Source: Bacteroidetes bacterium OLB11
GTDB taxonomy: Bacteria > Bacteroidota > Bacteroidia > Chitinophagales > Chitinophagaceae
Length of the DNA: 36,235 bases
NCBI GenBank assembly: GCA_001567165.1
Contig: LNFQ01000066.1
Coordinates: 1 to 36,235, forward strand
Direction of reading: 5' to 3'
Each line of letters starts with the position of its first letter. Position 1 is the first letter of the stretch. A program made the translations under genes and the position numbers. Shown here one piece after another: positions 4,143 to 7,880 of this stretch. Below the pieces are notes generated by a model. The model made no database searches, was not told the DNA's origin, and saw only the letters and a program-made list of their open reading frames with translations.

Positions 4143-4486
4143 ATTCAGCTTTATCAGAATCAAAAATAAACTATAGAGTTGTTATTGAAATCCTAAAATA
4201 AGCGTGTGAACCAAAATTTGGATTAACAAAAAAACATCAATAGACTCATTCACATTGTAACAATTACAGATGATTATTTTTACCTAAAATAGGCTTACTC
4301 AAAAACGTGAAAATCGACCAAAATTCAGGGCGAGCAGCGACCACTAACACCAAGCTGCATGATGTCAGCAGCCATCACGCAAGCGACCTTGCAAAAATCA
4401 ACCTTCTGACAAATTTCTACTTCGATTGGATTTCTAAAAGAAATTAAAATCGTAAATTTGGATCGCAACGTACAAACTTGAACAAA
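4143..4486. other. Intergenic region between barrel gene and methylase, with GC-rich patch
   Basis: About 340 bases with no coding signal, between the divergent barrel gene and the adenine methylase. Bases about 4327-4398 are clearly more GC-rich than the surroundings and contain a short inverted repeat (GCTGC...GCAGC, about 4363-4381). I do not recognise this patch. The last 30 bases carry the probable methylase promoter, listed separately. The left boundary of the accessory island probably lies here. Confidence 0.5.
4453..4460 (+). promoter_or_regulatory. Probable -7 promoter box of the methylase operon
   Basis: TAAATTTG fits the Bacteroidota -7 consensus TAnnTTTG. It lies 26 bases upstream of ATG 4487, giving a leader of about 20 bases. 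I see no clear -33 element. Confidence 0.55.
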
Positions 4487-5449
4487 ATGACTGAATATAA
4501 AATTGCAAAACCTTTCTTAAAGTGGGCAGGAGGAAAAACCCAGCTCATTTCTAACATTGAACAAGCTTTGCCGATTGATATAACACAGACAAATTTTACT
4601 TACATCGAACCATTTGTAGGGAGTGGAGCTGTTTTGTTTTGGATGTTGAACAATTTTCCAAATATGCAAAAAGCAGTCATTAATGACATTAACGAAGATC
4701 TTATCAATACCTATAAAACAATAGCGTCTAACCCAAAAGAATTGATTTCAATTCTTCAGATACTACAAAACGAATTTCATGAATTGGACAGTGATGATGA
4801 AAAAAAGAAACTTTATTATTATTCTAAGAGAGAGCGATATAACACCCGACAAGAAGAAACAGTTGGTCAATCGGCATTGTTTATCTTTTTAAATAGAACT
4901 TGTTTTAACGGTCTATATCGAGTAAATAGAAAAAACGAATATAACGTGCCAATGGGAAGTTATAAACGACCAACAATTTGTGATACTGATAATATTTTTG
5001 CAGTAAGTGAGGCATTACAAAAGGTTGAGATATTATGCGGTGACTATGAAAACACACTTAATCATGCAGAAAAAAATTCGCTCTTTTATTTTGATCCGCC
5101 ATACAAACCATTGAGCGAAACATCAAGTTTTAATTCGTATGCTAAAGACGAGTTCAATGATGATGAACAAATTAGATTGAGGGATTTTTGCCATAAACTT
5201 GACCTATTGAACCATCAATGGATTTTGAGTAATTCAGATGTTAAAGGCAAAGACATCAACGATAATTTCTTTGATGATTTGTACGCAAATTTCAACATTC
5301 AAAGAGTGGATGCAAAACGCAGCATTAATGCAAATTATAAAAATTATTTGGGCGTTCCCCTGTCGGGTCGGGCTTTCCGCTGCAATCTTTTGCTCGTACC
5401 TCACAAAAGGATTTCCACTTCAATCCCTAACGCGAAAGAAGCTGCATAA
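4487..5449 (+). CDS. DNA adenine methylase, Dam/DpnM (D12 class, alpha) family
   Basis: Class D12 N6-adenine methyltransferase, the modification enzyme of the island; family members such as Dam and DpnM methylate adenine in GATC, so GATC is the likely target (inference). Residues from ATG 4487 (320 aa): motif X FLKWAGGKTQL (10-20), SAM-binding motif I YIEPFVGSGAVLF (39-51), and catalytic motif IV DPPY (203-206). A TTG at 4478 is also in frame, but ATG 4487 fits the promoter spacing better. The C-terminus is odd: the conserved RSINAN stretch (278-283) should lead into a basic K/R-G-K segment, but instead runs into about 35 residues encoded by GC-rich, repeat-like DNA (5349-5445). The stop is immediately followed by the nuclease ATG at 5450, so the two are translationally linked. 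Function is sound; activity with the altered tail is uncertain. Confidence 0.9.
   Translation: MTEYKIAKPFLKWAGGKTQLISNIEQALPIDITQTNFTYIEPFVGSGAVLFWMLNNFPNMQKAVINDINEDLINTYKTIASNPKELISILQILQNEFHELDSDDEKKKLYYYSKRERYNTRQEETVGQSALFIFLNRTCFNGLYRVNRKNEYNVPMGSYKRPTICDTDNIFAVSEALQKVEILCGDYENTLNHAEKNSLFYFDPPYKPLSETSSFNSYAKDEFNDDEQIRLRDFCHKLDLLNHQWILSNSDVKGKDINDNFFDDLYANFNIQRVDAKRSINANYKNYLGVPLSGRAFRCNLLLVPHKRISTSIPNAKEAA
5349..5445. repeat. GC-rich hairpin element inside the methylase 3' end
   Basis: This stretch is much more GC-rich than its surroundings and is bounded by GCGTT near 5353 and AACGC near 5430, which pair. Inside, AATCTTTTG pairs with CAAAAGGATT (one bulge). It looks like a mobile or interspersed structured repeat that has become the last codons of the methylase. 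From memory, similar elements recur in other Bacteroidota genomes, but I cannot verify this here. Confidence 0.5.
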
Positions 5450-6268
5450 ATGAAAATTGTAACGACGCCTTGGAAAAATGAGTTATTCAACTTGATAAAG
5501 CAATCTCAAGAATCTATCAAGATTACTTCGCCATTCGTTAAACATAATATTTGCGAAGAAATATTAAATATAAAGAAAAGCCATATAAAATTTGAACTGA
5601 TTACAGATTTTAAACTTAGAAATATTTACTTAGGAAGTGTTGATTTAGATGCCTTAGAGAAAATCATTAATAATTCAGGTGTTGTAAAGAATTTTTCGAA
5701 GCTTCATTCTAAAATTTATTTATTCGACAATAAGAAAGCCATTATTACTTCAGGGAATTTAACAAATGGTGGTCTATTGAATAATTTCGAATATGGTATT
5801 TATACAGATGAGCAAGAAATAGTATCGAAAATAGCAAATGACTTTTACCAACTTTCTTCAAACGAAAACACAGGAATTGTCAAAAATGAGCATATTAAAG
5901 AAGTAAGGCAATTGCTTTTAAAAGTTCCGAATGAGCAGCACATTAGATTGCCCAAATTTGACATAGAAAATCAGAAAATTACAGACGCCGATGAAGATTC
6001 AATTATTTTAGATATTGATTCCATTGGAACAACCTTTAAAGGCTGGAAGTTAGAAGTTTTTAAATGTGCAAATAAAATACCTAATACCATTTTCTCATTA
6101 GCTGATATTAATACATTTGAAAAAGCCCTTAAGCAAAAATATCCCAACAACAATCATATTCCAGATAAAATTAGACAGCAATTACAAAATTTACGAGATA
6201 TTGGATTAATAGAATTTCTTGGGAATGGGAATTACAAGAAATTATGGGAAATTAGCACAACAAAATAA
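5450..6268 (+). CDS. Putative restriction endonuclease: PLD nuclease domain plus DpnI-type C-terminal winged helix
   Basis: Predicted restriction nuclease of the island (272 aa). The N-terminal half is a phospholipase-D-family nuclease with a single HKD motif: ITSPF (25-29), then LHSKIYLFD with H86, K88, D93, followed by SGNLTNGG (N103) and E114 in NNFEYG. PLD enzymes with one HKD motif, such as BfiI and Nuc, work as dimers and cut DNA without metal. Residues about 195-266 match the C-terminal winged helix of DpnI / Dam-replacing proteins: FKGWKLEVF, FSLADINTFEKALKQ, YPNNNHIPDKIRQQLQ, LRDIGLIEFLGNGNYKKLW. In DpnI that domain binds GATC sites. The gene starts directly after the Dam-family stop and precedes a DpnA-like methylase, so it occupies the restriction slot of a DpnII-like locus. 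The role as nuclease is inferred from motifs and context; whether it cuts unmethylated or methylated DNA is open. Confidence 0.8.
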   Translation: MKIVTTPWKNELFNLIKQSQESIKITSPFVKHNICEEILNIKKSHIKFELITDFKLRNIYLGSVDLDALEKIINNSGVVKNFSKLHSKIYLFDNKKAIITSGNLTNGGLLNNFEYGIYTDEQEIVSKIANDFYQLSSNENTGIVKNEHIKEVRQLLLKVPNEQHIRLPKFDIENQKITDADEDSIILDIDSIGTTFKGWKLEVFKCANKIPNTIFSLADINTFEKALKQKYPNNNHIPDKIRQQLQNLRDIGLIEFLGNGNYKKLWEISTTK

Positions 6269-6277
6269 TATGATATT

Positions 6278-6481
6278 ATGGAAGAATACGTATTTTACAC
6301 ACTTGAAGGATATACCTTTTCGCCCACTAATAAAGAACTGGAAAATATTCAAATTTTAGGATTCGAAAAAGGAGATACATTAAAAGAAGCTTTTGAAAAT
6401 TTAATAAAGAATAACAATTGGATAAAAAGTAGTGGATTCAATATAGACGAAATTAAAAATAGAAGGTTGTTTAATGATTGA
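6278..6481 (+). CDS. Small 67-residue protein in the restriction-modification operon
   Basis: Short acidic soluble protein of unknown function with no signal peptide or membrane segment. It opens MEEYVFYTLEGYTFSPTNKE and contains GDTLKEAFENLIKNNNWI and an FNIDEIKNRRL end. It starts 9 bases after the nuclease stop, and its stop overlaps the probable ATG (6474) of the decayed methylase, so it is a true operon member rather than a chance ORF. From memory, proteins of this kind occur near phage and restriction genes, but I assign no function. A regulatory or anti-restriction partner role is only a guess. Confidence 0.7.
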   Translation: MEEYVFYTLEGYTFSPTNKELENIQILGFEKGDTLKEAFENLIKNNNWIKSSGFNIDEIKNRRLFND

Positions 6482-7310
6482 TTCGATTTATAAACAAGAT
6501 AAACTCATACATATAACTCATTTTTACCTATTCGCACTATTTTTTATCCAAAAACAGTCTTTCTACTCAAAGCGGAAAAATCGTCAGTGTCAACAAAGGG
6601 AAATGGGACAAGTCAGAAGGATTTGAATACATAAATGGCTTTCATTGGTTCGTGATAAAATGAAAGAAGATGCTACCATTTGGATAAGTGGAACCATGCA
6701 CAATATTTTTTCGATTGGTCAACTACTTACTGAATTGGATTTTAAAATTTTAAACATTATCACTTGGGAGAAAACCAATCCGCCGCCAAATTTTTCGTGT
6801 AGATACTTCACTTATTCAACAGAACAAATCATTTGGGCAAGAAAAAGTAAAAAAACACCACATTATTTTAATTATGAATTGATGAAGCAATTGAATGGTG
6901 ATAAACAAATGAAAGATGTTTGGAGATTGCCTGCCATTGCTCCTTGGGAAAAATCATGTGGTAAACACCCCACACAAAAGCCACTTTCTGTATTAACTCG
7001 TTTAATTTTAGCTTCAACCAAACCTAATGCTTGGATTTTAGATCCTTTTGCAGGTAGTTCAACTACTGGTATTGCAGCTAATTTGGCAAACAGACGTTTT
7101 TTAGGGATTGACCGTGAAGAAGAATTCTTGACAATAAGCAAGAATAGAAAACTTGAAATAGATATTCCTAAAATTGCAGCAACTTATAGGCAAAAAATTA
7201 GTGGTTTTAACGACAAAAATGAATTGGAATTGTTCCTTGTAAAAGAACCACAAATAGAATATAAAACAGAAATAAACTTTGACTCAAAACGGGGCGATCG
7301 GTTAACATGA
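6474..7310 (+). pseudogene. Beta-class DNA methylase (DpnA / N4-N6 methylase family), decayed at its 5' end
   Basis: The second methylase of the island, of the DpnA-like beta class. From 6645 the protein is intact and recognisable: ATIWISGTMHNIFSIGQLL, NFSCRYFTYSTEQIIWARK, GKHPTQKPLSVLTRLILAS and the SAM-binding motif ILDPFAGSSTTGIAA, followed by FLGIDREEEF. The first 60 or so codons are damaged. ATG 6474 gives MIDSIYKQDKLIH; about 14 codons normally found before the catalytic motif are missing. At 6531-6545 the sequence reads F-A then Y-F-L-S with roughly 8 bases missing, exactly where the catalytic DPP of DPPY should be. The next frame (SLSTQSGKIVSVNKGKWDKSEGFEYIN) is lost again near 6640. 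These are not homopolymer indels, so this is probably a genuine pseudogene. An internal start would give a protein without the catalytic motif. Confidence 0.8.
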
Positions 7311-7438
7311 ACTGTACAAAAAAAATTAAACTAAATGATGAAATAGGCTTTTGTTATTATAAAAATATTGCTTTGTTATTGGTGTCATGATTGATTTTAT
7401 CTTCAATTTTTATTGTATAATTTGAATTCAATTCTGAA

Positions 7439-7720
7439 TATTTTGGTGAATTGCGAGTTAGAGGAACTGCAGTAACCGACAATGGGCAAAGTAGTGGAGC
7501 GGATTCTTTTATGAAATTGTTCGATACTGCAATGGACACTATTTCACAAGGTGGTGTGAGAAGAGGTGCTTTTGCTGCATATTTAGATATTGACCTTCCC
7601 GATATTGAAGAATTTTTACAAATAAAAGATATAGGAGGTCCACTTCAAAATTTATTTTCATTTTTTATAACTAAAGAAGGTAAGGAAAATAGCCCATTTT
7701 TTTCGAGCCTAAATTTCTAA
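7439..7720 (+). pseudogene. Fragment of ribonucleotide reductase large subunit
   Basis: About 75 codons match the central part of the ribonucleoside-diphosphate reductase alpha subunit: YFGELRVRGTAVTDNGQ, SGADSFMKLFDTAMDTISQG, GVRRGAFAAYLDIDLPDIEEF, LQIKDIGGPLQNLF. A full subunit is many times longer. No start region, cone or C-terminal cysteines are present, and after QNLF the frame runs into unrelated sequence before stopping at 7720. There is no promoter or start that would make sense of it. It is a remnant left at the right edge of the accessory island, presumably from recombination, and is not expected to function. The family match is strong; the origin is inference. Confidence 0.8.
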
Positions 7721-7775
7721 TGCATAAATTAAGTTAATCCTAATCATGCTATTTGAAAGACTTTTAAAAGAAAAA

Positions 7776-7868
7776 GGCAAGTTACTTATATCGCACCGCT
7801 ACAACTTCGTACCTTTGCTGTGTTCCCACCCTGGAGGATTAGAAGGAGCTGGTCGTATAAGACTTGCC
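7776..7868 (-). ncRNA. ffs: Signal recognition particle RNA, small bacterial type
   Basis: On the minus strand the conserved SRP domain reads CCAGGGTGGGAACACAGCAA, equivalent to the CAGGTCCGGAAGGAAGCAG helix-8 core of E. coli 4.5S RNA; the apical GGAA and the AGCA side are present. The ends pair (GGCAAG at the 5' end with CTTGCC at the 3' end), giving a rod of about 93 bases. A TACATTTG promoter box lies just upstream, and the 3' end is followed by TTTTTCTTTT, a plausible intrinsic terminator. The RNA pairs with Ffh to deliver nascent membrane proteins to the export machinery. Exact ends are uncertain by a few bases. Confidence 0.85.
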
Positions 7869-7872
7869 GATG

Positions 7873-7880
7873 CAAATGTA
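7873..7880 (-). promoter_or_regulatory. -7 promoter box of the SRP RNA
   Basis: On the minus strand TACATTTG matches TAnnTTTG and ends five bases before the GGCAAG 5' end of the SRP RNA, as expected for its start site. Confidence 0.65.

What the first reader, a model, noticed from the sequence alone, without database searches (positions are those of the whole stretch)
4487..7310. Restriction-modification island whose nuclease is PLD fused to a DpnI-type winged helix
The 5450-6268 protein joins a single-HKD PLD nuclease (H86, K88, D93) to a C-terminal DpnI/Dam-replacing winged helix (about 195-266). It sits between a Dam-family methylase and a DpnA-like methylase, as in DpnII-type loci where the nuclease is normally a PD-(D/E)XK enzyme. 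Known PLD restriction enzymes (BfiI, NgoFVII) are built differently as far as I know. A metal-independent GATC-specific nuclease is a testable prediction. This is my best candidate for an undescribed system.
Basis: partly seen in the sequence, partly recalled or inferred. Interest (0 to 1): 0.75.

Follow-up and report, generated by a model that had tools for sequence, protein, structure and literature searches.

The report
PLD-DpnI nuclease in a broken-methylase locus
A DNA-cutting enzyme that joins a phospholipase-D-type nuclease to DpnI's methyl-reading domain lies between two methylation genes that have each lost one end; it is predicted to cut methylated foreign DNA, and the locus is likely the scar of a switch from cutting unmarked DNA to cutting marked DNA.

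Summary
The fusion is real: ORF 5450-6268 is a single-HKD PLD nuclease plus a DpnI-type winged helix. Its novelty and proposed restriction-modification role do not hold. PLD-wH fusions were published in 2024 as likely N6-methyladenine-dependent type IV enzymes (PMC11037411). Of 9 genomes with this protein tested, 6 have no TIGR00571 (Dam) match and 2 only the locus's own. The window's dam lacks the C-terminal strand kept by 25 of 25 tail-less relatives; a Flavo-1 RNA element is read in its place. The dpnA lost its start and DPPY motif and is frameshifted. Related loci hold DpnII, DpnI or PLD-wH in the same slot. dam and dpnA reach full ends in the ordinary loci counted (7/7, 8/8) and in none of the wH loci counted (0/9, 0/9). 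Likely story: DpnII was replaced by a methyl-directed nuclease, disarming both methylases, a PLD version of Neisseria's dam-replacing gene. Methyl dependence and Dam inactivity are inferred. Against: no relaxed selection on the methylase bodies; Aba4572I toxic without Dam when induced; L003 keeps an open DpnA-family gene.

The parts
4478..5449 (+). dam gene (DpnM/Dam family). Ordinary body 4478-5335, then a replaced C-terminal tail; likely inactive (inferred)
   Evidence: PF02086 and TIGR00571; aligned to an ordinary dam only to residue 286 of 307; to DpnM 2dpm only to query residue 285, against 300 for an ordinary dam
5362..5438 (-). Flavo-1 RNA element (RF01705), antisense inside the dam reading frame: the junction scar
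   Evidence: 54.6 bits, E 2.6e-9; same element at the same junction in L005, L097, L105; one full-length match in G000
5450..6268 (+). PLD-wH endonuclease, 272 aa
5486..5854 (+). PLD nuclease domain with a single HKD motif (H86, K88, D93; S101 and N103)
   Evidence: PLDc_2 residues 13-135; invariant columns; model and Foldseek
6038..6241 (+). DpnI_C winged helix with KIRQQLQ; K240 and R242 correspond to DpnI K229 and R231 (numbering worked out by hand from the alignment)
   Evidence: PF17726 5.7e-28; alignment to 4esj; role of K229/R231 from PMC4117772 passages
6278..6481 (+). conserved 67-aa small protein (precomputed label PF27350), an alternative to DpnD
   Evidence: tblastn in 9 other wH-nuclease loci, both nuclease types; label
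6517..7322 (+). dpnA (N6_N4 methylase) relic: 5' end lost, DPPY degraded, frameshift near 6640; ORF 6645-7310 is its second piece
   Evidence: matches to residues 33-86 (6517-6672) and 77-306 (6633-7322) in different frames; N6_N4_Mtase from profile position 39

Best explanation
The 5450-6268 gene encodes a PLD nuclease fused to a DpnI-type winged helix; it likely acts as a type IV enzyme that cuts DNA carrying Gm6ATC, and it likely replaced DpnII in a dam-DpnII-dpnA operon whose two methylase genes have each lost an end. Shown: the fusion, the lost ends of dam and dpnA, the Flavo-1 junction, and that DpnII, DpnI and PLD-wH occupy the same slot in related loci. Inferred: the winged helix brings the enzyme to fully methylated GATC, as in DpnI. 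Two PLD domains would pair into one metal-independent active site, as in BfiI and Nuc (recalled). The host would survive because its own GATC is not methylated. The dam reading frame, whose stop codon abuts the nuclease start codon, may serve mainly as a leader for its expression.
For: (1) Reader: KIRQQLQ is invariant in 33 aligned sequences and present in 113 of the 120 listed homologues. It includes the residues aligned with DpnI K229/R231. (2) Host Dam: of the 11 PLD-wH genomes behind, 9 were searched (not those of L007 and L087). 6 have no TIGR00571 match at E<=1e-5, 2 have only the locus's own dam, 1 (L003's) has two others. (3) Gene ends: dam reaches residue 300 or more in 7/7 ordinary loci and 0/9 wH loci; dpnA starts at residue 1 in 8/8 against 0/9 (Fisher 9e-5 and 4e-5). 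(4) In 29 dam loci of the order, the 4 with a replaced tail are all followed by a wH nuclease (2 PLD-wH, 2 DpnI). The 25 with the usual C-terminus show none, though L167 has no downstream sequence (p 4.2e-5). (5) PLD-wH and DpnI share the slot and the junction element (window, L005: PLD-wH; L096, L097, L105: DpnI). In 21 of 30 loci the nuclease is followed by DpnD or the 67-aa protein, never both. (6) Published: all clones but Aba4572I cut colony counts 100- to 1000-fold in induced Dam+ cells, and drg of Neisseria truncates dam in a similar way.
Against: No PLD-wH enzyme has been purified. Aba4572I and CbaI were less toxic in Dam- cells when uninduced, but induced Aba4572I was toxic in Dam- cells and less so in Dam+ cells, and it lies beside a methylase predicted for CGATCG. 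L003 has an open 337-aa DpnA-family gene (47%, aligned from residue 2) right before its PLD-wH, and L007 another N6_N4-like methylase beside its own; their specificities are unknown. The dam bodies of the window, L005, L011, L096 and L097 are open, and neither dam nor dpnA shows raised dN (L097-L080 dN/dS 0.08). Plainly broken dpnA copies do not show it either, so the test has little power. By pattern, 57 of 120 listed dam homologues carry a tail, 58 the usual end, 5 neither, so the tailed form is not rare. L005 has both methylase bodies open. DpnA has a natural short form, so losing 12-20 N-terminal residues is not proof of death. A broken dpnA also occurs with no wH nuclease in the stretch fetched (L083). 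Eight wH loci carry an apparently whole PF05869-type adenine methylase.
Confidence: 0.7

Rival explanations
1. A working type II R-M system: Dam (and DpnA in L005) methylate GATC and the PLD-wH nuclease cuts only unmethylated GATC, its winged helix having lost methyl preference.
For: dam body open and about 80% identical to an ordinary dam, no relaxed selection; three-gene order kept in L005; induced Aba4572I toxic without Dam.
Against: dpnA is broken in the window and the Dam C-terminal strand is gone. The recognition helix matches DpnI's. Six of 9 PLD-wH genomes searched have no TIGR00571 match, where such an enzyme would cut its own host unless another methylase protects it. DpnI occupies the same slot with the same scar.
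Confidence: 0.14
2. Self-conflict held in check: the tailed Dam is still active or has another specificity, and the methyl-directed nuclease is kept silent or acts only in emergencies (an abortive or regulated arrangement).
For: Open dam frames through the junction in 5 of 5 full-length relics; many tailed dams in the database; intact-looking PF05869-type methylases beside wH nucleases.
Against: The tail runs in different frames and sequences past GRAF (33, 20 and 5 of 58 by type), so it is not one conserved protein end. Only 25-72 residues of dam are left to match in L094, L095 and L103. The dam frame ends within 3 bases of the nuclease start in 7 of 9 relics (overlap 22 and 31 in the others), which translation coupling would explain; but ordinary dam and DpnII also abut or overlap (5 of 5), so this is not specific.
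Confidence: 0.11
3. A decaying locus in which the nuclease too is no longer functional.
For: dpnA is a relic; related L088 has Y in place of the catalytic H.
Against: The window nuclease is a full-length ORF with every residue invariant in the alignment, and its exact sequence occurs on 10 contigs.
Confidence: 0.05

Closest known systems
PLD-wH endonucleases Aba4572I and CbaI (Helbrecht et al. 2024, PMC11037411)
   Same: PLD nuclease fused to a DpnI-like 6mA-reading winged helix
   Different: those are reported near type I methylases or a methylase predicted for CGATCG; the parts I read do not mention a dam/dpnA slot, the junction scar or the small partner
drg / NmeBII, the dam-replacing gene of Neisseria (PMC4269198, passages)
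   Same: a DpnI-type nuclease inserted in dam, truncating it in some strains; Dam and the nuclease exclude each other
   Different: nuclease half is DpnI-like, not PLD; there beside leuS, not in a dam-DpnII-dpnA operon
Pneumococcal DpnI and DpnII cassettes (PMC3573125, passages)
   Same: opposite-polarity GATC restriction at one chromosomal place; DpnM, DpnA and DpnII (and DpnD, recalled) have counterparts here
   Different: whole cassettes alternate there; here the middle is exchanged and methylase relics remain, and a PLD nuclease is a second occupant
BfiI and NgoFVII (PLD restriction enzymes)
   Same: PLD nuclease fold; window PLD over the RE_NgoFVII Pfam cut-off, BfiI among Foldseek hits
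   Different: their specificity domains differ (recalled); here it is the DpnI winged helix

Membership tests
PLD-wH 6mA-dependent type IV endonuclease | PLD nuclease plus DpnI_C winged helix in one chain | tested here: met
PLD-wH 6mA-dependent type IV endonuclease | residues for 6mA/GATC reading kept | tested here: met
   K240 and R242 align with DpnI K229 and R231; the authors' full motif figure was not seen
PLD-wH 6mA-dependent type IV endonuclease | no intact cognate GATC methylase in the host | tested here: inconclusive
   only the tailed dam in G000, no PF05869; other methylase families not searched; activity of the tailed dam unknown; genome 92% complete
PLD-wH 6mA-dependent type IV endonuclease | cuts Gm6ATC, spares GATC | not testable with these tools
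   needs an assay
DpnII-type type II R-M system | DpnII (PF04556) nuclease in the operon | tested here: not met
   none among the four ORFs scanned; PF04556 is present in L076, L077, L080
DpnII-type type II R-M system | complete Dam (DpnM) methylase | tested here: not met
   C-terminal strand replaced
DpnII-type type II R-M system | complete DpnA methylase | tested here: not met
   match starts at residue 33, frameshifted
dam-replacing gene (drg/DpnI kind) | DpnI-type reader nuclease at a truncated dam | tested here: met
   precedent read in passages
dam-replacing gene (drg/DpnI kind) | DpnI-like PD-(D/E)XK catalytic half | tested here: not met
   PLD instead
BfiI/NgoFVII PLD restriction enzymes | their own C-terminal specificity domain | tested here: not met
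   of NgoFVII only the N-terminal PLD model matched at E<=1

The most novel reading that the evidence does not exclude
In Bacteroidia the dam-DpnII-dpnA locus is a polarity switch. Again and again its nuclease is exchanged for a methyl-reading one built on either of two unrelated catalytic folds (DpnI's PD-(D/E)XK or PLD). The exchange removes the 3' end of dam and the 5' end of dpnA, so restriction flips from unmethylated to methylated GATC in one step, with the dam leader kept to express the new nuclease.
Probability: 0.5. Interest if true: 0.65.

Novelty: new variant of a known kind. Interest (0 to 1): 0.47.

Why it matters
It would give a natural series of before-and-after loci showing how a host changes from a system that cuts unmarked DNA to one that cuts marked DNA without killing itself: the exchange disarms the methylases at the same time. 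It would show that the DpnI reader is a module that works with different scissors at one site. It also names a small protein shared by both, and gives sequence-level support for methyl dependence of PLD-wH enzymes, which the 2024 study could not purify.

Tried and rejected
Structure of the window Dam: the AF2 job (A2, 28 rows) failed (pLDDT 44), so it says nothing on whether the tail can stand in for the lost strand.

Selection test: meant to show decay of dam and dpnA, it showed none, even for broken dpnA copies; reported as adverse or powerless.

Idea that the junction element belongs only to these loci: rejected. Once per genome in 5 of 16 genomes, but matching in 76 of 395 genomes of the class, and it is Rfam Flavo-1. 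It may mark an insertion-prone site and not be part of the nuclease unit.

Idea that the 67-aa protein is a DpnD: not supported (hhalign probability 0.7%).

Phages: 4 records, all matching within the winged helix. Plasmids: 66 records, none with one place covering 80% of the query. Viral contigs: 3 pattern matches, no relative.

Not tested: GATC avoidance in the host, REBASE, supplementary tables of the 2024 paper. Linking database proteins by equal contig length was considered in a note and dropped as too prone to chance.

Rows dropped: matches L024, L025, L026, L044, L046-L048 and L107 (divergent, interrupted, below cut-off or PLD part only) are not in the 30 loci; L085 and L086 repeat L003 and L005. 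In one search, 11 of 30 loci match dpnA; L003 (47%) and L007 (antisense, a short part) were set aside as other methylases, leaving 9. L083 and L084 (dpnA without wH nuclease: one broken, one at a contig end) and the distant L090-L092 are outside the 8 ordinary dpnA loci.

Full report
What is there. The ORF at 5450-6268 carries PLDc_2 (residues 13-135) and DpnI_C (197-264). DpnI and NucT are the solved relatives found by sequence. The AF2 model (mean pLDDT 89.2) matches NucT, Nuc, SauUSI, BfiI and DpnI among others. There are 470 homologues at E<=1e-10, and the 120 listed all carry both Pfam labels. Of these 120, 113 fit the HKD pattern, 113 have KIRQQLQ and 107 have both. The helix KIRQQLQ is that of DpnI and includes the counterparts of K229 and R231; the K229A/R231A variant impairs DNA binding in DpnI (PMC4117772, abstract and passages).

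Already in print. Helbrecht et al. 2024 (PMC11037411; outline, abstract, sections 16 and 19 in full, passages of others; [quoted passage not shown] They found 27 PLD-wH proteins and could not purify one. Aba4572I and CbaI were less toxic in Dam- cells when uninduced; on induction Aba4572I was the outlier, toxic in Dam- cells. They report that in 87% of cases no methylase lies within three genes on either side, and that for PD-(D/E)XK-wH some adjacent methylases were inactivated by frameshift. In what my searches listed (20 of 79 papers; 2 of 2), this is the only paper whose title or abstract deals with the fusion; I opened no others on that point.

Neighbours in the window. The dam is a DpnM-family gene (closest solved: 2dpm). 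An ordinary relative aligns with DpnM through the final strand at query residue 300; the window copy stops at 285. From there it reads through an element identified as Flavo-1 RNA, RF01705, antisense, 5362-5438, and its stop codon abuts the nuclease start codon. The dpnA match begins at residue 33, has YSHY where others have DPPY, and changes frame near 6640. Between nuclease and dpnA lies a 67-aa ORF.

The same locus elsewhere. Ordinary loci were found through dpnA in 395 genomes of the class (20 genomes matched; wide stretches taken from 13, of which 8 are counted as ordinary). They have C-terminally complete dam (7 of 7; the eighth stretch holds no dam) and N-terminally complete dpnA (8 of 8). 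The slot holds DpnII (PF04556) in L076, L077 and L080, and a PDDEXK_11 protein in L075; the neighbours tested in L079 and L082 had no Pfam match. Loci with a wH nuclease were found by protein in genome contigs (12 loci), by DpnI_C in the class (14 of 395 genomes) and by the PLD-wH alignment in the order (14 of 396). In the 30 loci tabulated (11 PLD-wH, 19 DpnI), 9 match the ordinary dam and 11 the ordinary dpnA. Setting aside L003 and L007, whose methylases are distant, 9 and 9 remain, and none is complete at the critical end: dam ends at residues 25-296 of 307 and dpnA starts at 12-218 of 308. L003 is an exception in kind: an open DpnA-family gene, 47% identical and aligned from residue 2, precedes its PLD-wH.

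Independent check on dam. In 371 genomes of the order, 29 dam loci were read. Four carry the replaced tail, and all four are followed by a wH nuclease: G000 and G539 PLD-wH, G434 and G423 DpnI. Twenty-five keep the usual C-terminus (R-x-x-x-x-E-[LIV]-[LIV]), down to 38% identity with the dam of L075, and none shows one; L167 ends at the contig. Fisher p is 4.2e-5 with all rows. G434 and G423 share a genus, so the rows are not all independent, and three of the four were already known.

One event or many. Five full dam bodies from wH loci do not form one clade (AU p 3.9e-6). The dam of L097 (DpnI) groups with that of L080 (DpnII) at 92/90, with no starred branch in the tree and two long end branches. 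Junctions also differ: after PEK, or after PEKRGE. This fits repeated exchange or transfer between dam lineages. Flavo-1 is dispersed in Bacteroidia (76 of 395 genomes), and the papers seen (PMC9723704 and PMC2864571, passages) give it no function, so it may simply mark a break-prone site. It reaches the Rfam threshold at the junction in window, L005, L097 and L105, and not in L011, L003 or L096 (L096 matches by BLAST); it was not found in the five ordinary loci scanned.

Partners. The 67-aa protein (label PF27350) follows the nuclease in 10 of 30 loci (4 PLD-wH, 6 DpnI), and DpnD in 11 of 30 (1 PLD-wH, 10 DpnI). Both never occur together (chance 0.003). They are not detectably related. Pneumococcal DpnI is encoded with DpnD (recalled; primer names). 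PLD-wH thus shares slot, scar and partner genes with DpnI, which supports a shared, methyl-directed role.

Mechanism. I take it that the winged helix binds fully methylated GATC and a PLD dimer cuts nearby without metal. The first part rests on DpnI and the 2024 study; the second on PLD enzymes in general (recalled). Losing both methylase ends in the exchange would let the cell survive the new nuclease. Neisseria offers a precedent: drg inserted in dam truncates it in some strains, and the authors state that Dam activity excludes Drg activity (PMC4269198, abstract and passages).

Against this. The methylase bodies are not under relaxed selection. Tailed dams are common in the database (57 of 120 listed, biased because the query has the tail). 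L005 has all three bodies open. DpnA has a natural short form (PMC3573125, abstract and passages). A dpnA can be broken without a wH nuclease nearby (L083). L003 and L007 have open methylase genes of unknown specificity beside PLD-wH. Eight wH loci carry an intact-looking PF05869-type methylase, two of them with PLD-wH (one search finds the family in 2 of 8 genomes and not in G000). If any of these methylate GATC, the simple story fails there. The absences are limited by incomplete assemblies and by searching one family.

Verdict. A real gene in a published architecture, in a setting that I did not find described in the parts read: a PLD counterpart of the dam-replacing gene inside a former DpnII operon. 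Specificity and Dam inactivity are predictions.

Noticed in passing
L001:3668-4147, L004:1214-1714 (PLD-wH); L093, L098, L101-L104 (DpnI): A small phage-type Dam methylase (PF05869 by Pfam in L101/L016 and by genome search beside L001 and L004, the rest by similarity) with an NPPY motif lies convergent to the wH nuclease in 8 of the 30 wH loci, in 7 of them behind the 67-aa ORF. An adenine methylase beside a methyl-directed nuclease is unexplained.
   Followed up: partly
window 6278-6481 and 9 related loci: A 67-aa protein (label PF27350) follows both PLD-wH and DpnI nucleases and never co-occurs with DpnD in 30 loci.
   Followed up: partly
window 5362-5438 (-): Flavo-1 RNA, a dispersed structured element of unknown function, is read in frame as the C-terminus of dam; frames past GRAF differ between relatives.
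   Followed up: partly
L011:3593-4843, L097, L105, L010: RhuM-family genes (PF13310 in L011, the others by similarity) lie downstream of DpnI/DpnD, before the dpnA relic in L011 and L097.
   Followed up: no
L088 (G141): A PLD-wH relative with Y in place of the catalytic histidine, probably catalytically dead.
   Followed up: no
L003:4905-6795: PLD-wH behind another DpnA-family methylase (47%) with a diverged Flavo-1-like stretch between them (by eye); its genome has two TIGR00571 matches elsewhere.
   Followed up: no
window 7451-7720: Short ORF that looks like a stray piece of a ribonucleotide reductase large subunit (read by eye, not searched).
   Followed up: no
window 7771-7876 (-): Small signal recognition particle RNA (RF04183, 93.2 bits).
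   Followed up: no
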